Part shown: positions 63 through 24,472 of the stretch, in pieces | Layout of the letters: every line of letters starts with the position of its first letter | Numbering within the stretch: position 1 is the stretch's first letter | IMG/VR virus record: IMGVR_UViG_3300008448_000549 | Span: 1-25,989 of that record | Source: a virus | Length of the DNA: 25,989 nucleotides | Direction: 5' to 3' (one strand) | The notes under the pieces: generated by a model | The model's input: the letters and a program-made list of their open reading frames with translations, nothing else | Told to the model about the DNA's origin: nothing | Databases searched by the model: none | Program-made: the position numbers and the translations under genes

Positions 63-386
63 TTATATAGTAAATGAATTTTCATGGCCATTAACGTATT
101 CTATAAATTCATATCCTAGATTACCTGTTGGCTCTTTACCTATTTGAGCTTCCATATGATGTAGCAATGCTTGTAGTCTATTATCATTATCGAGATCGCC
201 GTAAGCAATTGCCACTATATTATCATAACCATCTTTGGTTAGAAGTGTTATGTTTTTTTTATACTTACGCATAAGTAAATCAATCTTACTCTTGTTTGTT
301 TCTATCTTTACTTTAGAAGAAACACTTTCTTTGAGTATTGTATTAATTTCCTCACGTATAAGTTGTTTTAGTTCTGATAGTTTCAT
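63..386 (-). CDS. Small leader-bearing protein A, possible capsid-internal protein
   Basis: A 107-residue protein that I do not recognise by family. Its first 20 residues (M-K-L-S-E-L-K-Q-L-I-R-E-E-I, then I-L-K-E) match the leader of three other proteins in this window. L18-K19-E20 followed by S21 fits the L-x-E cleavage rule of T4-type prohead proteases, and I10-R11-E12 is a second possible site. The rest (residues 25-107) is a mixed alpha/beta domain with a Lys-rich N-terminal part and no catalytic motif I can name. The start overlaps the stop of the preceding leader-bearing gene by four bases (ATGA), so the two are probably translationally coupled. The shared leader is seen; packaging into the capsid is inferred. 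It is the last gene of the run inside the window. Confidence 0.85.
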   Translation of the reverse strand: MKLSELKQLIREEINTILKESVSSKVKIETNKSKIDLLMRKYKKNITLLTKDGYDNIVAIAYGDLDNDNRLQALLHHMEAQIGKEPTGNLGYEFIEYVNGHENSFTI

Positions 387-607
387 TTCACTTTACTTAA
401 AAAATTAATTAGATCAGGCATAGCATCTTTAGGTATAAAAACTTGACCAGCTAGTGTACCATTATTATAGTCGTATCTATAAATTCGTATACCATCTTTT
501 TTTGATTCTATTTCTAAGGTTCCGGAACGACCAAGTTTAGCTTTGGCTTCTCCTAGAGTTTTTCCTATTTCTTCTCTGATGATATTTTTTAATTCTGATT
601 TTTTCAT
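383..607 (-). CDS. Small leader-bearing protein B, possible capsid-internal protein
   Basis: A 74-residue protein. Residues 1-20 are the shared leader (M-K-K-S-E-L-K-N-I-I-R-E-E-I, ending L18-G19-E20, then A21). The L-x-E falls at exactly the same position as in proteins A and C although the middle residue differs, which suggests the site is under selection. The remaining 50 residues are one compact domain with alternating polar and hydrophobic residues (predicted strands about 29-58) and a C-terminal helix about 61-73. The layout loosely recalls small PC4-like single-strand DNA-binding domains, but I would not assign it. It lies two bases after the stop of protein C and overlaps protein A by four bases, so the three genes probably form one unit downstream of nrdA. 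Confidence 0.8.
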   Translation of the reverse strand: MKKSELKNIIREEIGKTLGEAKAKLGRSGTLEIESKKDGIRIYRYDYNNGTLAGQVFIPKDAMPDLINFLSKVK

Positions 608-609
608 TG

Positions 610-1221
610 TTATTTATTTTTCATCAAAGCAAAAAGGTCTACAAGATTTGTTTTCGAAAATTCAGTAGGTTTTTCATCAGCATAATCAGCATCAAATTGA
701 ATATAATATTTATCACCATTTATTTTTACAATTTTACCAAACCATGTACTTTTCATTCTTACAACCTCATCACCAACTTTAAGTTTGGTTTGTGGTGTTA
801 TTCTTGACCACTTACCAGCTTTGATTTCTTTTTTGACAGCTGGGCTTGCCCAGTTTGGAGCTCTTGTTGGATCTAAGTCATTCTTTATATACGCTATTAA
901 GTCATCTACATTTCCTTTAAGCAGTACTTTGTCGTCATATACAGTAAGATTTTTAGCGAAATTGGCTAGGGCGTCTGGGTTAAGTTTCTTACCTGCTTTC
1001 TGTCCTCCTAACTTGTACACCGCCATAAGTAGGTTTGATGTATCTTTTATAACTTTAGGATTTTTTGGATATGCAACAAAACGCTGCGTAGCTTTAGTAA
1101 GTATATTTTTCCACTCATCACCAGGATTGTTAAAGTCGTAGGAAGTAGGTAATACTGTAGCTTCTTTTAATACCTTTTCTATTTCCTCTTTGATGATTTG
1201 CTTTAGTTCTGATTTTTTCAT
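610..1221 (-). CDS. Leader-bearing protein C with C-terminal SH3/KOW-like domain
   Basis: A 203-residue protein when started at the ATG at 1221. An in-frame ATG at 1248 would add nine residues, but only the 1221 start aligns with the three other leader proteins (M-K-K-S-E-L-K-Q-I-I-K-E-E-I, then L18-K19-E20 and A21), so I prefer it. Residues about 25-140 look helical, with no known motif. Residues about 145-195 contain K-V-G-D-E-V-V-R-M, then G-K-I-V-K-I-N-G and Y-Y-I-Q-F, a pattern typical of SH3-like/KOW beta barrels that often bind nucleic acid. The gene follows nrdA closely. Capsid targeting is inferred from the leader. The binding partner of the barrel is unknown. Confidence 0.82.
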   Translation of the reverse strand: MKKSELKQIIKEEIEKVLKEATVLPTSYDFNNPGDEWKNILTKATQRFVAYPKNPKVIKDTSNLLMAVYKLGGQKAGKKLNPDALANFAKNLTVYDDKVLLKGNVDDLIAYIKNDLDPTRAPNWASPAVKKEIKAGKWSRITPQTKLKVGDEVVRMKSTWFGKIVKINGDKYYIQFDADYADEKPTEFSKTNLVDLFALMKNK

Positions 1222-1251
1222 TTTTTTTATTAAATGTTTATCATACATATT

Positions 1252-2976
1252 TTATCCTTCACAAGAAATACACTCGGATAATCGTTGTAAATTATCTCCT
1301 CTCAATACTGATTCAGTACGTAAGTAATATAATGTTTTAATTCCTTGTTTCCAAGCCTCTTTATGTACTTGACTAATCCATTTTGGAGTGTCATTTGGGT
1401 CAAAACATAGGTTTAATGAAATTGCTTGGTCTACATATTGCTGTCTAATACCATTTTGTTTTACAATTTCTAACTGGTTAATTTCTTTAAATGTTAAGAA
1501 CACTTCTTTTTCTTCATTAGTTAGAATATAATCAGGCAAACCATAAACAGAACCTTGATCCTTTAAAATTTGATCCCAAACACTATCAATGTTATATCCT
1601 TTCTTCTCAAGTAACGCTTCTAAAATTTTATTACGCTTAATGAATACACCTTTAGCTGTTTTCAAATTATAAACATTAGCTGGAATTGGTTCAATTGAAG
1701 GTGATACGCCTCCTGAAATATGAGCATTAGATACTGTAGGCGCGGGTGCTAGTAAGTGTGTATGTCTTAGACCTGTACCTTTACACCATTCTGGCTCACC
1801 ATATAATTCTGCTTGTTCTTTAGATGCTTTAATAGCCTCTCTTTGAATGAAATCAAACATTAATCTTGTATATGAGTTAGCCTGAATACCTACAAACGGT
1901 AATCCTTTTTGTTGTAGAAATGTATGCCAACCTAAAACACCCAATCCAATTGCTCTACCTTTAGTAGCAGAACGAACTGTGTTCTCCATAAACTTAACAT
2001 TCTTAGCTCTATCAATAAATTCTTGAAGTACACCTTCTAAGAACCAAATTGATAATTCAGGTAATGTCATTCCATTTTCAAACTTATAGTCTTTCCATTC
2101 ATCCCAACGAGCTAAATTCAAAGATGATAAACAACAAATAAATGAGTGTAATTCATCTGTATATAAAGCAATCTCAGTGCAAATGTTAGTCATTGACACT
2201 TTTAAGTTATTTTGCTTATATGCTTCAGGATTTGCTTTATTAATATTATCTTCAAACATAAGATAAGGCTCACCTGTTTCTAAACGTGTCTTAAGAATCT
2301 CACCCCATATTTTTAATGACTTAGGATCTTTATTCTCTAGTTTATTCATAAATTCATCATCAATAACAACACATTGATGAAGATTTAAACATTGTCTGTT
2401 AACATCTCCTTTAGGACGACGAATACCTAAAAATTCTTCTATGTCTGGGTGGTTAATACTTAAATTAACAGATGCTGCTCCTCTACGAACACTACCTTGG
2501 TTAGTGGCTAAGATTGTAGAGTCATAAATTTTACACCATGGAACTACACCTTCTGATACACCATTATCTCTAATGGCTTTACCTCTACCTCTGATACGTG
2601 ATACTCCGATTCCTACTCCACCACCCTGAGATGATAAACGCATTAATTCAGAATTTGCATCTGCAATACCTTCAATACTATCACCTACATCAATACCAAA
2701 ACATGAAATAGGCATTCCACGTTCTGTACCCATGTTTGATAATACTGGTGATGCTAAGCATAACCAGTTTTTAACTATTGCCTCATAAAACAATGGTTGT
2801 AAATCCTTACGTTTTAAACGGCGAGCAGCAAATTTACTTACTCTTTTATAAGCGTCAAATACATCTTCATCAGGTAGTAAATACCCTTTAGAAATCATAC
2901 TAACCGCTATTTCATCCATCCATTCAGGATAATGCTTCCCCTTAACCCAATTGCTTGTGTCTACTTGTATACTCAT
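1252..2976 (-). CDS. nrdA: Ribonucleoside-diphosphate reductase, large (alpha) subunit, class I
   Basis: The catalytic subunit that reduces ribonucleotides to deoxyribonucleotides for phage DNA synthesis. Key residues can be aligned with E. coli NrdA by motif: C92 in P-I-S-C-F-G and C281 in C-C-L-S-S-L-N form the redox pair; N264-x-C266-x-E268 is the active site with the thiyl-radical cysteine; Y550-Y551 (T-L-Y-Y) form the radical-transfer pair; the C-terminal C569-I-S-C572 is the cysteine pair that is re-reduced by thioredoxin or glutaredoxin. At 574 residues it is far shorter than E. coli NrdA (about 760) and starts just before the ten-helix barrel, so the N-terminal ATP cone is missing and dATP shut-off by that route is not expected. 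The ATG has the A-rich leader common here and no Shine-Dalgarno. Its partner nrdB is upstream, separated by the ART-like gene. Confidence 0.97.
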   Translation of the reverse strand: MSIQVDTSNWVKGKHYPEWMDEIAVSMISKGYLLPDEDVFDAYKRVSKFAARRLKRKDLQPLFYEAIVKNWLCLASPVLSNMGTERGMPISCFGIDVGDSIEGIADANSELMRLSSQGGGVGIGVSRIRGRGKAIRDNGVSEGVVPWCKIYDSTILATNQGSVRRGAASVNLSINHPDIEEFLGIRRPKGDVNRQCLNLHQCVVIDDEFMNKLENKDPKSLKIWGEILKTRLETGEPYLMFEDNINKANPEAYKQNNLKVSMTNICTEIALYTDELHSFICCLSSLNLARWDEWKDYKFENGMTLPELSIWFLEGVLQEFIDRAKNVKFMENTVRSATKGRAIGLGVLGWHTFLQQKGLPFVGIQANSYTRLMFDFIQREAIKASKEQAELYGEPEWCKGTGLRHTHLLAPAPTVSNAHISGGVSPSIEPIPANVYNLKTAKGVFIKRNKILEALLEKKGYNIDSVWDQILKDQGSVYGLPDYILTNEEKEVFLTFKEINQLEIVKQNGIRQQYVDQAISLNLCFDPNDTPKWISQVHKEAWKQGIKTLYYLRTESVLRGDNLQRLSECISCEG

Positions 2977-3029: not shown

Positions 3030-3707
3030 TTATTTAAGTTTTGAAATTATATATCGTTTTACATCTATTGTTAATGTATCGTATTTAGTATTTAATTTTT
3101 TATTAAAATATTCTATCATTTCATAATTAGGAAAATCAGAAGAATATTCTATTTTTTCTTTAGTTATAATATTATCAATATATTGCTTAACATCATCAGT
3201 TAAGGGTAAAGCTACCTGGTTGTAATCAACAAATTTTTTTCCTCTTCTTATTTTATCTGATACTTTTATAAAAGGGTATTTATCAATCAAATTTTTTATG
3301 GAGTTTGGATTGTATAATTCTTCACTACCAGGACTTATTCTTACTTCTATTATATAATCTATAATATTCTTAATATCTCCTTGTACTATTTCTTCCATTT
3401 CATCTTCAGATTCTTTATAATCAGGATAGTTAAAATAATAATTATATGGAGTAATTTTATATTTATTAGATAATTTATTTCCATCTATAGATATTCTAAC
3501 AGTTTTAGTACCGGTCCCTCCTACTCCCCCTATATCTCCCAATTTATCTCTAGTTAGAGATACTGTTGGGAGTTTGTCTTTTTCAAATTTGTTACTTGCC
3601 TTTAATGTGTTTGTTTTTAAAATATTAAGTAATGAGGACATATCTGTAAAGTGATATAAAGTACCTACTTGTTTGCCTTCATTTAATAAATCAATTAATT
3701 TTATCAT
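3030..3707 (-). CDS. ADP-ribosyltransferase-like (DarT/ART-fold) protein with possible capsid-targeting leader
   Basis: A 225-residue protein. Residues 17-34 read L-Y-H-F-T-D-M-S-S-L-L-N-I-L-K-T-N-T, the N-terminal NAD-binding pattern (Y-H-x-T, then a helix with a S-L-x-x-I-L core) seen in DarT-like and related ART-fold enzymes. V-S-L-T-R-D follows at 49-54, and E-E-I-V-Q-G-D-I at 105-112 is a plausible position for the catalytic glutamate (E105 or E106) before a strand. The first ten residues (M-I-K-L-I-D-L-L-N-E, then G11) resemble the ten-residue capsid-targeting peptides of T4 internal proteins and end in a perfect L-N-E site for the prohead protease. The gene sits between nrdB (11 bases away) and nrdA and reads as an insertion into the reductase pair. 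The ART fold is inferred from motifs; target and activity are unknown. Confidence 0.6.
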   Translation of the reverse strand: MIKLIDLLNEGKQVGTLYHFTDMSSLLNILKTNTLKASNKFEKDKLPTVSLTRDKLGDIGGVGGTGTKTVRISIDGNKLSNKYKITPYNYYFNYPDYKESEDEMEEIVQGDIKNIIDYIIEVRISPGSEELYNPNSIKNLIDKYPFIKVSDKIRRGKKFVDYNQVALPLTDDVKQYIDNIITKEKIEYSSDFPNYEMIEYFNKKLNTKYDTLTIDVKRYIISKLK

Positions 3708-15354: not shown

Positions 15355-16913
15355 TATATATTTCTAATAAAATTTTCTTTAATTTGAGGAGTAAAATTAT
15401 GAATTGGAGTGAATGATAAATCTACTTCAATCATACGTGGTAATTGACCTACAAATTCATCTCCATCTGGGCTATCATCTTCTAATTTAAAAGGACTACC
15501 ATCTTCTTTTCTATTTAAATCCCACCCAGCTTCAAAACTTGGTTTTAAATTAATATTTTGTACAATACCTGGGACATCTAGTAAGTAATCTCCAATTGTC
15601 ATTCTAATAAAATTACCTCTCATTAAACCAGCATCTGAGTAACTAGGTGCTGTTACTCCTACTAAATAATTTAATTTTTGATATATAGGTAACATTTCTG
15701 CTCTTGAGTGGGCATATATTGTGAATGATAATGAGATGTCTCTAGAGAAGCCAGCGTATTTGTAAAAGTTTTCAGCTCTACCTACATATTTATAAGATTG
15801 CCAATCAGCTTTAAAACCATCACCTAAATTGTTTATATAAGCTCTAAAAAATAAAAAAGAATTATCAATATTATCTACTGTATTATTATTTATTATTTCA
15901 AAGTAAAACTTAACTAAATCACTATTTTTATAGTCTTCAATACTTCCTGATGTCAATATTCTAGACGCATTTATTTCATCTACAGCATAAAAATTATTAG
16001 GATTAGTTTTTGGAGGTATACTCCTATATTCTGTGTATGAAGTTTGATATGTATCTTCTCTATTAAAATTCCCAGGTGTACCTATACCTACTCTACTCAT
16101 ATATGGATTGTAAGTATTGTTTAGTGAGTTTAGAGTTGTGCTTCCTCTTTTTCCTGCTCTTTCAATATCTACAGTAGGTAATATTGTTTCACTACTTGTA
16201 GGGTCAAATCTTTTAAAAATCTCTAAAGCATCTTTAGTTACAACTTCATTATTAGTTCTTTCTAAAGGATTACCATACCCATTACCAATAACTCTAATAT
16301 TAGTATTACCTATACCTAAAACACTACCTGGACCTCCTGAGTATGAGAATAAATAGTTAGGATTAGAACTAATATTATAAGTACTACTTAATAAAAAATT
16401 CTCAGGTTGATTAGATCTAGAATTTATTTGTTTTATTTTATATAAACCATATAATCTGTTAATATCTAGATCATTATCTCTTAAAGTAGTTCTGTAATAT
16501 CCACTACTACCTCCATTAAAATATCCTCTAGCAAAAGGATCTAATCCTTGTTTATTTAAGTGATATCCTATTGATGTCACACCAGCTTGAGCTAAAGTAT
16601 TTAATGGATTATAGATTCTACCAAGTCCACCAGGTACTTCAACATTTTGTCTTTCTAATAATTCTTGTTTAGCTATAAACTGTAAACCATTAGGAGACTT
16701 AGTATCTTTAAATAATTTAGTTAATCGACTAACATCCTGTTCAGAACTTACTAGGTTAAGACGTCCATTACGCAACAGAAAATCTGAAGCGTTTTCAGTA
16801 TAACCATCAGGTATAGGAGCAACTATATAAGGTTGGTTACTTGAACCTCCACCTTTTTGGTCATTCCCGTACTTTAAAGTCTTTAAATTGGTTTTTAAGT
16901 CTATTAATCCCAT
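15354..16913 (-). CDS. Baseplate/tail-tube junction protein, gp48/gp54-like
   Basis: A 519-residue protein. The N-terminal half is rich in Gly, Asn and Ser and looks extended. The C-terminal third (about 345-519) has the tube-like pattern: F-R-A-Y-I-N-N-L, W-Q-S-Y-K-Y-V-G-R-A-E-N-F-Y-K-Y, I-S-L-S-F-T-I-Y-A-H-S-R-A-E-M, then a strand-rich end. This order (tube-like fold with an R-A-E-M helix) fits proteins that cap the baseplate and start the tail tube. It shares M-G-L-x-D at its start with the small protein just upstream, and its ATG overlaps that gene's stop by one base. I am confident that it is a baseplate protein and less sure which T4 counterpart it matches. Confidence 0.7.
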   Translation of the reverse strand: MGLIDLKTNLKTLKYGNDQKGGGSSNQPYIVAPIPDGYTENASDFLLRNGRLNLVSSEQDVSRLTKLFKDTKSPNGLQFIAKQELLERQNVEVPGGLGRIYNPLNTLAQAGVTSIGYHLNKQGLDPFARGYFNGGSSGYYRTTLRDNDLDINRLYGLYKIKQINSRSNQPENFLLSSTYNISSNPNYLFSYSGGPGSVLGIGNTNIRVIGNGYGNPLERTNNEVVTKDALEIFKRFDPTSSETILPTVDIERAGKRGSTTLNSLNNTYNPYMSRVGIGTPGNFNREDTYQTSYTEYRSIPPKTNPNNFYAVDEINASRILTSGSIEDYKNSDLVKFYFEIINNNTVDNIDNSFLFFRAYINNLGDGFKADWQSYKYVGRAENFYKYAGFSRDISLSFTIYAHSRAEMLPIYQKLNYLVGVTAPSYSDAGLMRGNFIRMTIGDYLLDVPGIVQNINLKPSFEAGWDLNRKEDGSPFKLEDDSPDGDEFVGQLPRMIEVDLSFTPIHNFTPQIKENFIRNI

Positions 16914-17167
16914 TAACGAGGCATATTTTTAATATACTCTGTTGGAGCAGTACTTAAATCTAAGTTAGTTGGTTGTGGTAAAATATTAATAGTTCCATCT
17001 AAGTAAGCTTGAAAATCAGCATTTACTTGAGACGCATTATCCCCAGTAGTTGAATAACTATCATGTAATTTAGATAATTGAGTGGCTAGTGGGTTTATAG
17101 ACGGAGTATTTCCGTTATAAGCGGTTAAAATTGAACCTTGTTGTTGTAGTTTATCTAATAGTCCCAT
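16913..17167 (-). CDS. Small baseplate-associated virion protein
   Basis: An 84-residue protein with no catalytic motif: Gly-Leu-Leu-Asp start, then low-complexity Thr/Asn/Gln/Pro-rich sequence, as in small linking proteins of virions. It sits between the tape measure and the gp48/gp54-like gene, shares the M-G-L-x-D N-terminus with the latter and overlaps it by one base. A copy of the promoter-like motif lies 13 bases before its ATG. Function is inferred from position. Confidence 0.7.
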   Translation of the reverse strand: MGLLDKLQQQGSILTAYNGNTPSINPLATQLSKLHDSYSTTGDNASQVNADFQAYLDGTINILPQPTNLDLSTAPTEYIKNMPR

Positions 17168-17196: not shown

Positions 17197-19650
17197 TTAT
17201 TGAATTCTAACAGAACCTAAATTTAAAGCAGTACCTACCTTAGATGAATCCATATACACATTAGTATCTTTATTAAGTATCTGATTTAATATATTTTTAA
17301 TTTCAGCTAGTTCAGATGAAGAATTACCACCTAATATTTCTTTACCTCTAGGTGAGTTTAAAGGAATAATAGCCTCGGTACCTGCTTCTCCAACAGTAGC
17401 GTTTTTAAGTTTTTTAGTTACAATTCCTCCATTAGCAAATTCAGGACCAGCCATATCTCTAGCTGCTAAAGTAGCATCTAAACCAATTGATGCTGCTGTA
17501 CCTAATCCAGGTAATGTACCTGCTATACCACTAGCAGCTTCTAATCCAGCACCTGCCCAGTCACCTTCTAAAGCTCTTGAAGCTGCAAATCCTAAACCTG
17601 CTATAGCTCCTATAATAGGAATTTTCTTTAAAAATGATTTACCTAATGCTTTAAATAATCCTTTACCTGCTGCTTTGCCAACACCACCACCCCCAGCTCT
17701 AATAGCAGCTAATGCTGCTTTTGAAGTCATACCTGGATTAGCTGCTTTCATAGCGGCTACTTGTTGAGCCATAGTTTTAAGACCACTATTCATACCACTA
17801 GATAATCCTCCAGCTTCACTTCTTATACTTTTAAATATACCTAATACACCTTTTAATCCTTTTCCTAAATTCATTATACTATTAATTATAGAAAGCCCAG
17901 CCATTCCTCCTAAAATTAAAGCTATAGATTTAGCATGATCATTTATAAATTCAAATAATTTTTTAATAACATCTAATACTGGTTGTAAAGCATCAAAAGC
18001 CTCAATCATTTTTTGGGCAGATTCAGCTTGTAATTCAGCTAATGTTCTATTTTCTTGTTGGCGAACTAATTCATCATTTCCTAATTGTCCTATAAGTTTT
18101 TTTCTAGCTGCTTCTGCTTCCTCAATTTTTCCTTGTTGTTTTAATTGGTCTATTCTTTGTAATTCTAATTTAACTTTATCACTTAATTCTTCTTTAGTTT
18201 TAGCTCCAAGATTAGCTAATGCTGTTTGTTCCATCAATGAATTAGCCAATTCTTCTCTACTCATTCCTATCGCTCCAGCTATTGCTTCTTGTTGGATACG
18301 ATTCATTCTTGAAAACTTTTCTTGAGTAATACCTTGTTTAGCTATTTCTTTAGCTACTCCAGCTATATCATTATTTAAAGCATATAGTCTAGCTTGCTCT
18401 AAATTAAGATTTCTACCAGTTAATAATTCAGCTTCTAACTCAGAAGCAATAGATTGTTCAAAATTTAATAATGAATCTGCTATTTTATCAACATCTGATA
18501 AACTTAGTCCTAATTTTTTAGCTTCTATAGCTGCTATAGCTAAACTTTTCCCAGTTCCTTGAGTTGATATTTTAATAGCCGCACTAGTATTAGCTATATC
18601 TTTAGTAATAACTTTGTAATCAATAGCAGTTTTATTTAATGCATTACTTAATTTAACTTCACCTCGAATTTGATTACCTAAGTCTTTAGCGCTTATACTA
18701 CTAGCTTCTGTTAAAACAGCTAATTTGTTAGCTTCATCAACAGATAAACCTAAAAATTTAACTTGAGAAGCTAATTCTTCAGCTGTATCTTTACTTACAA
18801 TAGCTGTTGTACCTAAACTTTCAGAAAAACTTTCAACTGATTGTTGTAAATCTTTTCCTGTTAATCCTTGTATTCCTCTAGCGGTCTCATTAAAAGATCT
18901 AAGCATTTTATCTGCTGAGTCTTTAGACATATTTAAATTACGAGATAAAGATACACTTCTTTCATCCGCGTCTTTTAAACCTTTAACTAGAAATCCAATA
19001 CCTAACGCACCTAATCCTTTTACTAAAACACCACCTAATTCTTTAGCCCCAGTAGCAAAAGATTTTAATCTACCTGCTCCCTCAGAAGCTGCCTCTCTAG
19101 ATGCATCTGAGGCACTTTGAAATTCTTTAAATACTTTACTTAATAAAGGAATATCTTTAGCTAAATCAGATACTTTATCAAAAATCTTAGCTTTAGAATT
19201 AATTTTATCAAATTGATCTGATATCACTTTAGCAGTTGAAGCTTGCTCTCTTAATTTTTCAGCTCCATCTTCATATGCTCTAGCTACTTTAAATGCCTCT
19301 ACTGCTTGTTTTTTAGTTAAATTAGCAGCTTCAGCTCTTAATCGTGAAGCTTTAGCTTCTAACTTAAGGGCTTCTTCTTGTGCTTTTCTAACTTTATCTT
19401 GAAATCGAGATTGTTCTTTTTTAGAGGCTAAAGTTTTTGAATCTACTTTAGAAATAGCATCTGCTAAAGCTTTAGAAGCATTAAATCCTTCTTTAAAAGC
19501 ACTAACATTTTCCCCAGTTAATTTGCTTACTTTATTTAAAGTATTACCTATATTATTACTAATGGCATCTAAATCATTAAGCAAACCTATAGCATCTGCT
19601 CTTAAATTTTTTATGTCATCCTCATTAATATTACCTATTTTTTTAGCCAT
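17197..19650 (-). CDS. Tail tape measure protein
   Basis: An 817-residue protein. Most of residues 1-560 is predicted helical and Ala/Lys/Glu-rich, with coiled-coil character around 80-140 and 500-550. Hydrophobic segments follow (about 575-597, S-I-A-L-I-L-G-G-M-A-G-L, and an Ala/Gly-rich stretch about 670-720), typical of tape measures that enter the membrane. The end carries F-A-N-G-G-I-V (738-744) and G-E-A-G-T-E-A-I-I-P-L-N (754-765), a common tape measure C-terminal signature. At the usual 0.15 nm per residue it predicts a tail of about 120 nm. It follows the chaperone genes, the standard order. Confidence 0.93.
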   Translation of the reverse strand: MAKKIGNINEDDIKNLRADAIGLLNDLDAISNNIGNTLNKVSKLTGENVSAFKEGFNASKALADAISKVDSKTLASKKEQSRFQDKVRKAQEEALKLEAKASRLRAEAANLTKKQAVEAFKVARAYEDGAEKLREQASTAKVISDQFDKINSKAKIFDKVSDLAKDIPLLSKVFKEFQSASDASREAASEGAGRLKSFATGAKELGGVLVKGLGALGIGFLVKGLKDADERSVSLSRNLNMSKDSADKMLRSFNETARGIQGLTGKDLQQSVESFSESLGTTAIVSKDTAEELASQVKFLGLSVDEANKLAVLTEASSISAKDLGNQIRGEVKLSNALNKTAIDYKVITKDIANTSAAIKISTQGTGKSLAIAAIEAKKLGLSLSDVDKIADSLLNFEQSIASELEAELLTGRNLNLEQARLYALNNDIAGVAKEIAKQGITQEKFSRMNRIQQEAIAGAIGMSREELANSLMEQTALANLGAKTKEELSDKVKLELQRIDQLKQQGKIEEAEAARKKLIGQLGNDELVRQQENRTLAELQAESAQKMIEAFDALQPVLDVIKKLFEFINDHAKSIALILGGMAGLSIINSIMNLGKGLKGVLGIFKSIRSEAGGLSSGMNSGLKTMAQQVAAMKAANPGMTSKAALAAIRAGGGGVGKAAGKGLFKALGKSFLKKIPIIGAIAGLGFAASRALEGDWAGAGLEAASGIAGTLPGLGTAASIGLDATLAARDMAGPEFANGGIVTKKLKNATVGEAGTEAIIPLNSPRGKEILGGNSSSELAEIKNILNQILNKDTNVYMDSSKVGTALNLGSVRIQ

Positions 19651-19701: not shown

Positions 19702-19961
19702 GTATTATAAATTGGATATTTAACTTTTTTATTTTTAGCAGCTTCTTTAACTGCTTCTCCTTCTATCCAAGTAGACTCAGCTTCATTTTTCTTAGGTTCA
19801 TGATAATTAACTATAAGATTAAAAGTTAAATTTCTTAACCATATAGGCATATTATAAACTATATCCCAATCATAACCACCTTGACCATGAAACACTATTT
19901 CATGAATTTGTCTGAATAAATTTAATCTATAATCAAGCGTCAGGCCAAAAAAAGTTAACAC
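19683..19961 (-). CDS. Tail assembly chaperone, second ORF (probable frameshift extension)
   Basis: A 92-residue frame between the gp26/gp51-like gene and the tape measure, where many tailed phages encode the T part of a G/GT chaperone. It contains F-R-Q-I-H-E-I-V-F-H-G-Q-G-G-Y-D-W-D-I-V-Y-N-M-P-I-W-L, a pattern I associate with the small C-terminal partner of T4-type hub assembly proteins. Its only start is a GTG lying inside the end of the upstream ORF, with no ribosome-binding site, and the overlap contains a run of seven T. Reaching this frame from the upstream one needs a +1 or -2 shift, giving a product of about 330 residues. Separate initiation at GTG is the alternative. Confidence 0.75.
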   Translation of the reverse strand: MLTFFGLTLDYRLNLFRQIHEIVFHGQGGYDWDIVYNMPIWLRNLTFNLIVNYHEPKKNEAESTWIEGEAVKEAAKNKKVKYPIYNTGVSKK

Positions 19962-20676
19962 TGATTGGTAAATCTACAGCCTCCTCTCTGCCTTCACTTG
20001 TAGTTAAACTTACATTTAAATCTATATCTGGAGAAATTTCGTTATAATATTTTCTAAATTCTCTAGCGTCTTTAGCTAAAAAATAATTATTCACAAAATC
20101 TCTAATTTCAGCTTTTTCAGAAGAACCATTTACAGATGTTATAATATGTGCTAATCTAACTGTTACATCACTAGTTATATTTTTATTTATTTTTTGAAGA
20201 CCTTTTATTTCTTGTTCAATTTTATTTTCATCACCATGAGTTAATAATCTGAAAGTAATAACATTGCCTGAGTTAGGTAAAGTATAAGAAAACTCATTAG
20301 ATACAGCTTTAGCAAAATCAGGATGTAAAGGTTTAGATTCTAAAGCACTTAGATCAATTGATTGTTCTACACCATCATAATTAAAATCATATTTAGATCC
20401 ATAAGACAAAATACGTGCTGCTACCATTATCGCGTTTTTATCTCCTACTAATAAATCATTGTAATTAATATTTGATACAATTAATGATTGGAGTAATCTA
20501 TCTATCACTGTACCACTTTTAATATAATTTTGATTAGTTAGAATATCTTCTTCTTTAGCGGTCATATATTTCATTTCAATTTTACCACTAAATAAAGGAC
20601 TTTCTTTTGAATACAATAAACCTTTTGAAGGTAACTCAACTGTTTCAGTTGGGATGTTTAATTTATTTTTTTCCAT
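19933..20676 (-). CDS. Tail assembly chaperone/baseplate hub assembly protein, T4 gp26/gp51-like
   Basis: A 247-residue protein. E-L-P-S-K-G-L-L-Y, then K-Y-M-T-A-K-E-E-D-I-L-T-N, G-T-V-I-D-R-L-L-Q-S-L-I-V and L-L-V-G-D-K-N-A-I-M-V-A-A-R-I-L-S-Y-G are the signature blocks of the T4 baseplate hub assembly family (gp26/gp51 type). In relatives placed between the tube and the tape measure it probably coats the tape measure during tail assembly. The ORF ends ...N-F-F-W-P-D-A, and the two Phe codons lie in the seven-T run that I suggest as a slip site. A terminator and promoter-like motif precede it, so it appears to start its own transcript. Confidence 0.85.
   Translation of the reverse strand: MEKNKLNIPTETVELPSKGLLYSKESPLFSGKIEMKYMTAKEEDILTNQNYIKSGTVIDRLLQSLIVSNINYNDLLVGDKNAIMVAARILSYGSKYDFNYDGVEQSIDLSALESKPLHPDFAKAVSNEFSYTLPNSGNVITFRLLTHGDENKIEQEIKGLQKINKNITSDVTVRLAHIITSVNGSSEKAEIRDFVNNYFLAKDAREFRKYYNEISPDIDLNVSLTTSEGREEAVDLPISVNFFWPDA
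19947..19953 (-). other. Candidate programmed frameshift site
   Basis: Coding strand A-A-C then seven T then G-G-C: zero frame reads AAC TTT TTT TGG, and the 92-residue frame reads ACT TTT TTT GGC. The zero-frame stop is 12 bases beyond the run. A +1 shift (skipping one T) or a -2 shift joins the two ORFs. -1 is the commonest direction in tail chaperones, but +1 and -2 are known. Confidence 0.55.
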
Positions 20677-20756: not shown

Positions 20757-21245
20757 TTAGAAGTTTAATACACAGTAATCAACACCTACAGTCATTGTAA
20801 TATTTACAGCGGTATTTTCAGTATCCCAGTTATAATCTCCAAAATTAGCTTCCTTAATAAAAGCACCTTTAAGAATCCATTCACTTACTACATCACCTAC
20901 AGGACCAATTACGTTTAATGTTAAGTCTTTCTTATAGAAATCTGAGTAACCATCACGTCCTGTTACTGATTCGTGGTGTAAGCGAACCCATTCCATTACC
21001 GATTGTGCACCTGAAGGTGTAATTGGATCGAATAGAGTCATCTGAATATCACCCCAAGTAGTTTTACCTTTAACTTTACGTTGTATGTTAATGTGATTTA
21101 ACACTACTTCACCTTGAGTTAATGATACAGCGTTAACACCTTTCACTAAATAGCTAGGTATTCCGTCCATATACATGACGAATCGGTTAGCCTGTTTTGG
21201 TTCAAATGCTGTGAAAAATATTTCGTTTGCGTCTAATATTGCCAT
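20757..21245 (-). CDS. Tail tube protein, gp19-like
   Basis: A 162-residue protein that forms the inner tube. It starts with F-E-P-K-Q-A-N-R-F-V-M-Y-M-D-G-I-P and has the beta-strand order of the T4 gp19 family, including G-D-I-Q-M-T-L-F-D-P, the helix S-V-M-E-W-V-R-L-H-H, Y-K-K-D-L-T-L-N-V-I-G-P and the C-terminal strands A-V-N-I-T-M-T-V-G-V-D-Y. Length matches gp19 (163 residues in T4). It follows the sheath gene by 40 bases with its own promoter-like motif and is closed by a terminator, so high-level expression of sheath and tube can be separated from the chaperone gene. Confidence 0.93.
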   Translation of the reverse strand: MAILDANEIFFTAFEPKQANRFVMYMDGIPSYLVKGVNAVSLTQGEVVLNHINIQRKVKGKTTWGDIQMTLFDPITPSGAQSVMEWVRLHHESVTGRDGYSDFYKKDLTLNVIGPVGDVVSEWILKGAFIKEANFGDYNWDTENTAVNITMTVGVDYCVLNF

Positions 21246-21285: not shown

Positions 21286-23010
21286 TTACACTGGGAAAGT
21301 AGCTCCAGTTGGGGTAATATTGAAATCTAAATAAATAAACTCAGCTGTCTTAGTTGGTTGTAAATAGATTTGACCTATTAATTCATTTCTATCAATTACA
21401 TCTGGTGTATTATTTGTATCATCCATTACTACTCTGAACGCATATAAACCTTGTCTTTGTTGTACAGTTTCAAGATATGGATTAACTTGGCTTAAGAATT
21501 GATTTCTTGTAGCGGCTGTATTTTGTTCAAACACTAAGTTAAGAGCTACTTGTGAGATATAAGACTTAAGTTGAATTAATAATCTTCTAACATTTACACG
21601 ATCAAGAGCAGATGCTGCTGATTGTAATGTTTTCTGACCATATACTACAACTCCAGTTCCTGGGAACGTTGCTATTGGATTTACTTTGTTTAAGTATAAA
21701 GTATCACGAGATGATTGTGGTAATTTTTGTTCTACACGAATTACTCTACTTAATCCACCTCTGTTTATACCTGCTGGTGCGAACCAAGGTTCAGCTACTT
21801 TATCATTATAAGCATAAACACCTGCAATCATAGTTGAAGCTGGAACCCAAACGTTTTTACCTGTTGCTGGGTCTTTAATTTGACACCAAGGCCAGTAAGC
21901 AGCAGCATATGATGTATCAAAACTAGCATTTGCTTCTCCGGTAACAGCAGTAACTGATGAACCATATCCTACTAAATCAACAACATAAATGTTATCTCCT
22001 CTATCTTGAGTGTTAGATACAATTTGTGCTACTTTACTTGTATGGGTTGCGAAATTACTTATTAAACCTGGAGTGTATAAAGCATTAAATTTATAATCAT
22101 CTTGGTTAGCTAATAAATCAATCATATTATCATAGTTATCAGCTACTAAACCTTGAGTATTAGTAGCGTTAGCTATAGTATCATAAAAATTAGCTCCTCC
22201 TTTTACATCACCTACAGCTCCACCAAATGTACCACTAGCTGCTAATGGAATAGAAGCTGTATAAGCGGCATTTGAAATTAAACCTGATGATAGTAAGTAA
22301 TTAGGTGTTTGTAAGTTTACTGATTTTACTCTTACATATCTTGAAGCATTCGGATATGAACCTGATACTTCAATTTGATTATTAGTTGAGTTGTAATTGT
22401 AAACATAATCACCTATTACTCTAGATATATAATTAGTTGATTGTGGGTCTAATGATAAGTTAGTCCATGTTTCTAATACAATTGGATTGTTTGTTGTATC
22501 GTTACCTTGTCTAATTAATAAACCAAACGTACCTGAAGATGTATTTGGGTTAATAATTTGCCAACGAATGTTATTTACAGATCCACTTGGTAAAGCACCT
22601 CTTGAGTCTTGAGTGCTTGTACTGTTCATTATAATACCTTCAGAGATAGTTTCAAGTGTAAATGCTGGTTGAGAAGCAGCTTGTGTACTAGCACTTATAG
22701 CTGAGCTTGTAGCTTCTGTATAAGTTCCAGATACTATTCTTGCTACTAACAATGTTTCACCTCCGTTAGCAAAATAATTGTAAGCTGCTATTGAAGTAAA
22801 ATAAGAGTAAGAATTACCTCCACTTATTAATAAATCTCCAAATTTATTTACATACTCTGAATATGAAGTAACAATTGTAGGTATTTCAACAGGTCCTTTA
22901 ACTGTCGGACCTATAATAGCAGCTCCTACAGTTATTGGGCGTTCGTTTACAAAGGATGTATCATTTTCTCTTGCTAATACACCAGGTGATATTAATGCGT
23001 TTGTTGCCAT
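21286..23010 (-). CDS. Contractile tail sheath protein, gp18-like
   Basis: A 574-residue sheath subunit. The N-terminus (L-I-S-P-G-V-L-A-R-E-N-D, then V-G-A-A-I-I-G-P-T-V-K-G-P and T-S-Y-S-E-Y-V-N-K-F-G-D) and the C-terminus (Y-L-Q-P-T-K-T-A-E-F-I-Y-L-D-F-N-I-T-P-T-G-A-T-F) are classic for phage sheaths. W-F-A-P-A-G-I-N-R-G near the middle is another conserved block. The central Ser/Thr/Asn-rich part (about 95-270) is probably the variable outer domain. T4 gp18 has 659 residues, so this is somewhat shorter. Its presence shows that the virion is a contractile-tailed myovirus. A promoter-like motif lies 25 bases upstream. Confidence 0.96.
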   Translation of the reverse strand: MATNALISPGVLARENDTSFVNERPITVGAAIIGPTVKGPVEIPTIVTSYSEYVNKFGDLLISGGNSYSYFTSIAAYNYFANGGETLLVARIVSGTYTEATSSAISASTQAASQPAFTLETISEGIIMNSTSTQDSRGALPSGSVNNIRWQIINPNTSSGTFGLLIRQGNDTTNNPIVLETWTNLSLDPQSTNYISRVIGDYVYNYNSTNNQIEVSGSYPNASRYVRVKSVNLQTPNYLLSSGLISNAAYTASIPLAASGTFGGAVGDVKGGANFYDTIANATNTQGLVADNYDNMIDLLANQDDYKFNALYTPGLISNFATHTSKVAQIVSNTQDRGDNIYVVDLVGYGSSVTAVTGEANASFDTSYAAAYWPWCQIKDPATGKNVWVPASTMIAGVYAYNDKVAEPWFAPAGINRGGLSRVIRVEQKLPQSSRDTLYLNKVNPIATFPGTGVVVYGQKTLQSAASALDRVNVRRLLIQLKSYISQVALNLVFEQNTAATRNQFLSQVNPYLETVQQRQGLYAFRVVMDDTNNTPDVIDRNELIGQIYLQPTKTAEFIYLDFNITPTGATFPV

Positions 23011-23320: not shown

Positions 23321-24472
23321 TTAAGCTACTTGAGTAACTGAAACTATAATAGAAGGAATAGCTGGAATATTACCTGTAGCACCAGCGTATAAGAATTGAG
23401 TAGTTGACTGATCACTTTGGTAAGCTATCTCTGCATATGAACCTGAATTAAATGTGTCAACAAAATTCCATGCTGCTACTCCATAGTCTGTAGTACCAAA
23501 ATCTATTACAGTCGCTGAATTTGCTATATTTACCCCATCTTTTTTAAACCATATGTTTATGTTAGTATTATTAGTAGGAGTATATGCTTGAACTGAGAAT
23601 TGTATATTATATATTCCTGTATTAGCAAATGTTATTCTACTTCCACTAACTACTGATATTCCACTAGAAACACTCACTGTACTATATATAAATGAACCAG
23701 ATACATTTTGGGTAGCATTTATACTAGCGGTATGATATGCTGAAATATAGTTAAATTGTTTTTGCCCATTTATATAAAGACCTGTACCTATACCATTACT
23801 AGTTAAACTTAAAGAACCAGTAATTGTTTGATTACCAACATAAACTGAAGAACCAGTGTAAAATTGAGAACCAGTTACTATAAAGATTGTATTACTAAAA
23901 ACTGAACTTCCACTTACTGTTATACTACCATTTAAAACAGTATTACCTGTTATAGTATTAGAACCACTTAAAGTGTGGGTTCCAATAAAACTTGTTGATC
24001 CTGAAATATTCACACTTCCACTTAAAATAGTATTTCCTATTAAAGTATTAGAACCTGTAACAGTTAATGAACCAGTTATTTGAACATTTTGAATTAGTGG
24101 GTTAACATATGATGAAGTTAAAGCTAAGGATGAGGTTAACTTAATTACATCTGATATACCATTTCCCGCACTATTTGATAATCGTAATCGCCCTGTTGAA
24201 TCATTACCTAAAGTCGCTCCTAAAGTAGTTGAATATGAAGATGTGGCAGCATATGAGGATGTGGCAGCATATGAAGATGATACTACACCTATAATTCCAC
24301 TTCCACTACCTACAAAAGATGAAGCAGTGATAGAAGTACTAGGAGCACTTATTGATGATCCTGTTACTTGTATTATTGAACCTGATAAAGTTGAAGATAA
24401 ATATGTAAGGTTACCATCCATCTCTGGGATAGTAAGTTTTGATCCTTTAACTGCTCTTAAAATTAATGGCAT
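23321..24472 (-). CDS. Fibre-like structural protein 1, repeat shaft with C-terminal beta domain
   Basis: A 383-residue protein. The start (L-I-L-R-A-V-K-G-S-K-L-T-I-P-E-M-D-G-N-L-T-Y-L) is a pattern typical of fibre and tail-appendage proteins. Residues 62-80 contain tandem S-S-Y-A-A-T hexapeptides. Residues about 125-225 are degenerate G-S repeats (L-T-V-T-G-S-N, L-S-G-S-V-N-I-S-G-S and so on) that suggest a trimeric beta shaft. Residues about 255-383 (Y-N-I-Q-F-S-V-Q-A-Y, I-N-I-W-F-K-K-D-G-V) look like a C1q/TNF-like beta sandwich, which could be the binding tip. There are no cysteines. It has a promoter-like motif 10 bases upstream. A host-binding role is inferred. Confidence 0.78.
   Translation of the reverse strand: MPLILRAVKGSKLTIPEMDGNLTYLSSTLSGSIIQVTGSSISAPSTSITASSFVGSGSGIIGVVSSSYAATSSYAATSSYSTTLGATLGNDSTGRLRLSNSAGNGISDVIKLTSSLALTSSYVNPLIQNVQITGSLTVTGSNTLIGNTILSGSVNISGSTSFIGTHTLSGSNTITGNTVLNGSITVSGSSVFSNTIFIVTGSQFYTGSSVYVGNQTITGSLSLTSNGIGTGLYINGQKQFNYISAYHTASINATQNVSGSFIYSTVSVSSGISVVSGSRITFANTGIYNIQFSVQAYTPTNNTNINIWFKKDGVNIANSATVIDFGTTDYGVAAWNFVDTFNSGSYAEIAYQSDQSTTQFLYAGATGNIPAIPSIIVSVTQVA
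24240..24275 (-). repeat. Two tandem 18-bp repeats inside fibre-like gene 1
   Basis: Two 18-bp units that differ only at the last base, encoding the hexapeptide repeat S-S-Y-A-A-T, with diverged partial units on both sides. The same peptide theme recurs in the adjacent fibre-like gene. Confidence 0.85.

What the first reader, a model, noticed from the sequence alone, without database searches (positions are those of the whole stretch)
3030..3707. ART-like effector with a T4-style ten-residue leader, inserted between nrdB and nrdA
M-I-K-L-I-D-L-L-N-E before G11 resembles the ten-residue T4 internal-protein leaders and ends in L-N-E. The following domain has Y-H-F-T, a S-L-x-x-I-L helix and E-E-I-V-Q-G-D-I, as in DarT/ART-fold enzymes. 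T4 Alt is an ADP-ribosyltransferase packaged in the head and injected. This may be an independent, small counterpart that modifies host RNA polymerase, another protein, or DNA.
Basis: partly seen in the sequence, partly recalled or inferred. Interest (0 to 1): 0.85.

Follow-up and report, generated by a model that had tools for sequence, protein, structure and literature searches.

The report
Head-packaged ADP-ribosyltransferase effector, unnamed phage family
A T4-like phage, probably of Flavobacterium or relatives, carries a small enzyme predicted to tag molecules with ADP-ribose, behind a short address label that in T4 sends proteins into the phage head for injection; it belongs to a large phage family that Pfam and PHROGs do not name.

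Summary
The 225-aa ORF (3030-3707, minus) lies between nrdB and nrdA; in the nearest isolate, Flavobacterium phage immuto, those genes are adjacent. A profile scan found at least 121 relatives in viral contigs. Across 30 very divergent members only H19, R53 and E105 are invariant, the predicted triad, except that E105 (in an ExE motif), not E106, is the fixed glutamate. AlphaFold models match the ADP-ribosyltransferase (ART) lobe of Tpt1 (Z 11.1) and DarT (Z 9.1). The leader MIKLIDLLNE|G fits the published T4 gp21 rule L/I-x-E: 37 of 39 relatives not caught by the search motif keep [LI]-x-E|[GAS] at the same place. Many unrelated proteins in the same contigs carry such leaders, and all 11 large contigs in which either was found encode both the gp21-type protease and gp23. 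In 16 relatives the ART is an internal domain of longer, often multi-enzyme proteins, always preceded by that site, suggesting polyproteins cut by the prohead protease. Not shown: packaging, cleavage, catalysis, target. Verdict: a new ART family, probably head-packaged and injected; new variant of a known kind (T4 Alt, internal proteins, polyvalent proteins).

The parts
3030..3707 (-). ART-fold effector gene, 225 aa (stop codon included)
   Evidence: ORF; at least 121 relatives in viral contigs; ART fold
3678..3707 (-). Ten-residue leader MIKLIDLLNE, predicted capsid-targeting sequence; predicted prohead-protease cut after E10 (E10|G11)
   Evidence: fits L/I-x-E (PMC9026906); motif kept in 37/39 relatives outside the search motif
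3252..3677 (-). ART catalytic domain, residues 11-152 (trimmed AlphaFold model)
   Evidence: pLDDT 83, pTM 0.80; Tpt1 Z 11.1, DarT Z 9.1
3651..3653 (-). H19 codon, invariant His of strand 1 (Y-H-F-T)
   Evidence: invariant in A4
3549..3551 (-). R53 codon, invariant Arg of S-x-T-R
   Evidence: invariant in A4
3393..3401 (-). E103-M104-E105, the ExE motif; E105 predicted catalytic glutamate
   Evidence: E105 invariant, E103 at least 90%; DarT has Q158-x-E160 (PMC11281641)
3718..4668 (-). nrdB (ribonucleotide reductase beta), upstream flank
   Evidence: ORF; by comparison with immuto nrdF/nrdA, adjacent without an insert
1252..2976 (-). nrdA-type ribonucleotide reductase alpha, downstream flank
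   Evidence: ORF; immuto order
63..386 (-). ORF with leader-like start MKLSELKQLIREEINTILKE|S
   Evidence: sequence
383..607 (-). ORF with leader-like start MKKSELKNIIREEIGKTLGE|A
   Evidence: sequence
610..1248 (-). ORF with leader-like stretch MKKSELKQIIKEEIEKVLKE|A (after an upstream in-frame start)
   Evidence: sequence

Best explanation
The gene makes a small NAD-dependent ADP-ribosyltransferase that is carried inside the phage head and injected with the DNA. Proposed steps: (1) the first ten residues (MIKLIDLLNE) act like a T4 capsid-targeting sequence and hold the protein in the scaffolding core; (2) the gp21-type prohead protease (family S77) cuts after E10 and leaves a 215-residue enzyme in the head; (3) it enters the next host cell with the DNA; (4) H19 and R53 help to hold and orient NAD and the substrate, and E105 of the ExE motif drives transfer of ADP-ribose to a host target early in infection. 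The nearest folds (DarT, Tpt1) act on nucleic acids, so a nucleic-acid target is at least as likely as a protein. Shown here by sequence and structure prediction: the family, the fold, the triad, the leader and its site, and that relatives' contigs encode the protease. Inferred: packaging, cleavage, injection, activity, target.
For: Fold: AlphaFold2 models; the top PDB hits are all DarT or Tpt1, VIA-align Z 11.1 Tpt1 and 9.1 DarT. Triad: only H19, R53 and E105 invariant in 30 divergent members. Sequence profile: DarT is the best PDB match, weak at E 0.32, aligning its YHIT; 28 of 70 members reach Pfam Tox-ART-HYD1 at E up to 0.1, best 1.2e-6. Leader: 37/39; non-homologous proteins of the same loci show [LIVMF]xE[AGS] at residues 9-22 in 47.6 of 315 clusters against 17-21 in control windows, and D or K variants are not enriched. 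Protease and gp23 in 11 of 16 contigs, the same 11. gp23, scaffold-like protein and protease of immuto carry L/I-x-E sites near their N-termini. Independent case: Alishewanella phage Slickus01 has a block of genes with MKIDxLYESLLEE|G-type leaders near its terminase, five of them this ART family and one an ART-PolyVal above the Pfam cut-off. T4 precedent: PMC9026906.
Against: No proteomics was found, so packaging is inferred. The gene sits among nucleotide-metabolism genes, not head genes, and lacks the ATATTTATAA element seen before six structural genes of this window. Leader genes are not enriched beside ART genes (26/239 against 59/497). Some distant relatives (Dickeya JA13, Pseudomonas Lu11) lack a recognisable L-x-E leader. 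Residues 153-225 have no assigned fold. The window is a fragment and does not itself show gp21.
Confidence: 0.64

Rival explanations
1. It is an ART enzyme made and used inside the infected cell (a ModA/ModB-like modifier or a superinfection-exclusion toxin), and LLNE|G is not a working packaging signal in this copy.
For: Position inside the nrdB-nrdA pair, no late-type element upstream, leaderless relatives in Dickeya phages.
Against: [LI]-x-E|[GAS] is kept at the same spot in 37/39 relatives independent of the search motif, with a variable middle residue, also as an internal site in 16/16 fused copies and as shared leaders in Slickus01.
Confidence: 0.2
2. It is a Tpt1-like RNA 2'-phosphotransferase or another NAD-using RNA-repair enzyme rather than an ADP-ribosyltransferase.
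For: Highest structural score is to the NAD lobe of Tpt1 (Z 11.1).
Against: Only the C-terminal lobe of Tpt1 is matched (archaeal chain residues 88-180). Tpt1 uses an R-H-R-R set without a catalytic glutamate (own knowledge), whereas this family has an invariant E105 in ExE, as DarT has Q158-x-E160 (PMC11281641). DarT scores within about 2 Z units and covers more residues (130 against 109).
Confidence: 0.06
3. It cleaves NAD (NADase or NAD phosphorylase) or lacks catalysis and acts as a binding protein, for example an inhibitor of host defence like the T4 internal proteins IPI-III.
For: Head-packaged T4 internal proteins inhibit GmrSD restriction enzymes (PMC12373910); some ART-fold toxins deplete NAD.
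Against: Invariance of exactly H, R and E argues for catalysis; it does not tell transfer from NAD cleavage.
Confidence: 0.1

Closest known systems
DarT (Pfam PF14487), DNA-modifying ADP-ribosyltransferase
   Same: Fold (Z 9.1, 130 residues aligned); Y-H-[FI]-T start of strand 1; invariant Arg and a (Q/E)-x-E glutamate
   Different: Known as a bacterial toxin paired with DarG; here phage-only in our scans, no antitoxin seen, and only 2/70 members reach the Pfam model at E up to 0.1 (best 0.0039)
T4 Alt and internal proteins IPI-III
   Same: Ten-residue leader ending in L/I-x-E; T4-like phage; Alt is a packaged, injected ART (PMC9026906, PMC9503650)
   Different: Alt has an R-S-E active site (PMC5512222), is much larger and is not related by sequence; packaging is unproven here
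Polyvalent proteins with ART domains (Tox-ART-HYD2 / ART-PolyVal PF18760)
   Same: ART domain in multi-enzyme phage proteins next to zincin peptidases and nucleotidyltransferases; Pfam's nearest model to many members is Tox-ART-HYD1
   Different: Their active site is H-Y-D; here H-R-E. Processing was proposed to be by the embedded zincin (PMC5512222); here the junction before the ART fits the prohead protease
Tpt1/KptA RNA 2'-phosphotransferase
   Same: NAD-binding lobe, Z 11.1
   Different: No N-terminal lobe here; invariant ExE glutamate present

Membership tests
ART superfamily | ART fold around an NAD pocket | tested here: met
   AlphaFold models; leading PDB matches all DarT or Tpt1
ART superfamily | Conserved catalytic triad in strands 1, 2 and 5 | tested here: met
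   H19, R53, E105 the only invariant columns of A4; that they meet in the pocket was not measured
ART superfamily | NAD-dependent transfer of ADP-ribose | not testable with these tools
   needs an enzyme assay
DarT (PF14487) | Match to the curated Pfam model | tested here: not met
   no match for the window protein; 2/70 relatives, best E 0.0039
DarT (PF14487) | Catalytic Arg and Glu (R51, E160 in Thermus DarT) | tested here: inconclusive
   R53 and E105 invariant, but residue-by-residue overlay not available
T4 Alt family | R-S-E active site | tested here: not met
   H-R-E instead; definition from PMC5512222
T4-type capsid-targeted internal proteins | N-terminal leader of about ten residues ending in L/I-x-E | tested here: met
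   MIKLIDLLNE|G; 37/39 relatives
T4-type capsid-targeted internal proteins | Phage encodes a gp21-type prohead protease | tested here: met
   in relatives' contigs, 11/16, all of those in which gp23 was found, and in immuto; not visible in the window fragment
T4-type capsid-targeted internal proteins | Protein present and cleaved in the virion, ejected with DNA | not testable with these tools
   needs proteomics and an injection assay
Tox-ART-HYD1 (PF15633) | Score above the curated cut-off | tested here: not met
   window protein no match; for the relatives whose bits were shown the scores were 19-23 against a cut-off of 25; 28/70 match at E up to 0.1, best 1.2e-6, bits not shown

The most novel reading that the evidence does not exclude
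T4-like phages of this group make multi-enzyme polyproteins (NMN adenylyltransferase, ART, zincin peptidase, HAD phosphatase and others) that the prohead protease cuts at L/I-x-E|G/A/S sites inside the head, so that one packaged chain delivers several separate effectors, including an NAD-making and an NAD-using enzyme, with the incoming DNA. The single-domain gene in this window is a stand-alone unit of that system.
Probability: 0.4. Interest if true: 0.85.

Novelty: new variant of a known kind. Interest (0 to 1): 0.62.

Why it matters
T4 Alt is the classic injected ART. Here is a separate ART family with another active-site set, present in at least 121 viral contigs plus isolates, without a PHROG or Pfam entry that names it, and mostly behind a leader that predicts delivery. 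If right, the leader rule lets one list the injected arsenal of T4-like environmental phages from sequence alone, and the internal copies suggest that the prohead protease also releases effectors from polyproteins, a role proposed so far for embedded zincins. Both claims can be tested in isolates (Slickus01, immuto, Mel-JY01).

Tried and rejected
Single-sequence searches gave almost nothing (Pfam, PHROGs, PDB, INPHARED); only the profile from five members opened the family. Bacterial and archaeal genomes: no relative, so a host toxin-antitoxin origin finds no support, although that scan needs near-exact short motifs. PADLOC: none. The idea that ART genes sit in cassettes of leader genes: not supported over all loci, though it holds in Slickus01. 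A T4 late promoter TATAAATA before the gene: absent and not enriched in the window. Enrichment of [LI]xE[AGS] in the multi-domain proteins outside the ART junction is modest (43 against 26.0, sd 5.3; control large ORFs also 158 against 113.6), so cutting at other junctions is only suggested. A search for virion proteomics of a relative: Atu_ph07 has 131 virion proteins (PMC6102473), but its ART-like protein could not be mapped to that list.

Full report
Observation. The ORF at 3030-3707 on the minus strand encodes 225 aa and starts at the first ATG of its frame. It lies ten bases after nrdB and before the nrdA-type gene. In the nearest isolate by tail sheath (Flavobacterium phage immuto, 55% identity) nrdF and nrdA are adjacent with a gap of nine bases and nothing between, so this looks like an insertion. 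A relative with 84% identity lies in a different place in another contig, so the gene moves as an accessory unit.

The family. Single-sequence searches found no Pfam, PHROG, PDB or INPHARED match of weight. A pattern scan gave three more members, and a profile of five sequences found 121 confirmed relatives in viral contigs, 80 of which were fetched. The one scan of 84,980 bacterial and archaeal genomes found none. Isolates hold distant members: Microcystis phage Mel-JY01 (three copies, one truncated), Vibrio phages of the 6E35 type, Alishewanella phages Slickus01 and Slicko01, Salicola phage SCTP-2, Pseudomonas phage Lu11, Dickeya JA phages, Bacillus SP-15. Those that were opened are annotated as hypothetical proteins.

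Fold and active site. AlphaFold2 with 70 relatives gave pLDDT 78, and with the trimmed domain 83 and pTM 0.80. The leading Foldseek PDB matches are all DarT and Tpt1, best E 9e-4. VIA-align gives Z 11.1 (rmsd 2.6, 109 residues) to yeast Tpt1 and Z 9.1 (rmsd 3.8, 130 residues) to Thermus DarT. Pfam's nearest models are Tox-ART-HYD1 (28/70 members, best E 1.2e-6; where bits were shown, 19-23 against a cut-off of 25) and DarT (2/70). The sequence profile places DarT first in the PDB but without significance (E 0.32). In an alignment of 30 members down to 18% identity, only H19, R53 and E105 are invariant, and E103, S50, T21, D75, G76 and I29 reach 90%. DarT uses R51 and E160 in Q158-x-E160 (PMC11281641). 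The set H-R-E differs from R-S-E of T4 Alt and H-Y-D of polyvalent ARTs (PMC5512222).

The leader. T4 gp21 cuts after L/I-x-E, and the first ten residues of IPIII suffice for packaging (PMC9026906). MIKLIDLLNE|G fits. Because one of the two search motifs contained E[GA]KQVGT, the test was made on the 39 members that do not match it: P3 is L or I in 39/39, P1 is E in 38/39, P1' is G, A or S in 38/39, and P2 varies freely. In 16 cases the ART is an internal domain of a longer protein, and the same site precedes it at the same distance in 16/16, whatever stands upstream. Distant Slickus01 copies, found by another route, have MKIDxLYESLLEE|G-type leaders although KQVG is lost. Unrelated proteins of the same loci show the motif at residues 9-22 in 47.6 of 315 homology clusters against 17-21 for control windows, while D and K variants of the motif are not enriched. 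In immuto, leader-type starts fall in 9 of 20 ORFs between 110 and 130 kb, which holds the head genes, and 7 of 189 elsewhere (P 8e-7; the region was chosen after seeing the data). These include gp23, the scaffold-like protein and the S77 protease, and elsewhere a protein starting MIKLIDLLTE|S. Of 16 contigs with family members, the same 11 hold both an S77 protease and gp23.

Context and mechanism. In Slickus01 the block near the terminase has five members of this family and an ART-PolyVal above the Pfam cut-off (PF18760, E 4e-11), most with the same leader. Iyer and co-workers predicted that many phage ARTs are head-packaged (PMC9503650). Large relatives join the ART to NMN adenylyltransferase-like, zincin and HAD domains (domain calls partly from motifs). 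The simplest reading is a packaged, clipped and injected NAD-dependent transferase. Whether it modifies protein, DNA or RNA is open; the nearest folds act on nucleic acids.

Limits. No virion data were found. The gene lacks the ATATTTATAA element that precedes six structural genes in the window, although six relatives have the TATTTATA core. Motif enrichment in long proteins outside the ART junction is modest. The model could not be overlaid on DarT residue by residue. The role of residues 153-225 is unknown.

Noticed in passing
window upstream of 16913-17167, 17197-19650, 19933-20676, 20757-21245, 21286-23010, 23321-24472 (minus strand): The element ATATTTATAA lies 19-34 bases before the ATG of six structural genes and before none of the replication genes; a candidate late promoter. 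TATTTATA occurs 30 times on the immuto + strand, often before late genes, and before six relatives of the ART gene.
   Followed up: partly
L050 3023-10311, L041 1159-10274: Many consecutive unrelated small genes share starts such as MKYVKTFESFVFE|A or MKHIHTFENFLNE|S, resembling the T4 internal-protein leader; some continue into NMN adenylyltransferase-like domains (FFPGRFQPFH).
   Followed up: partly
L047 2989-6963, L028 4855-7380, L034 5434-8325, L088 4177-8037; immuto gp183 (L119 9132-11855): Multi-enzyme proteins of 800-1325 aa with NMN adenylyltransferase-like, zincin, HAD and nucleotidyltransferase-like parts and L-x-E|[GAS] sites at several junctions.
   Followed up: partly
L123 1920-2834, 3004-3951, 5148-6029: Three ART-family paralogues of Pseudomonas phage Lu11 share the start MKIQLA without L-x-E; perhaps a leader for a protease of another specificity.
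   Followed up: no
L039 3-3245, residues 979-1076: A Hint/intein-like end follows a GGTYGHMNHPFD stretch in one of the multi-domain proteins.
   Followed up: no
window 1252-2976: The nrdA-type ORF is only 574 aa, short for a class I large subunit; immuto has one of similar length (about 570 aa).
   Followed up: no
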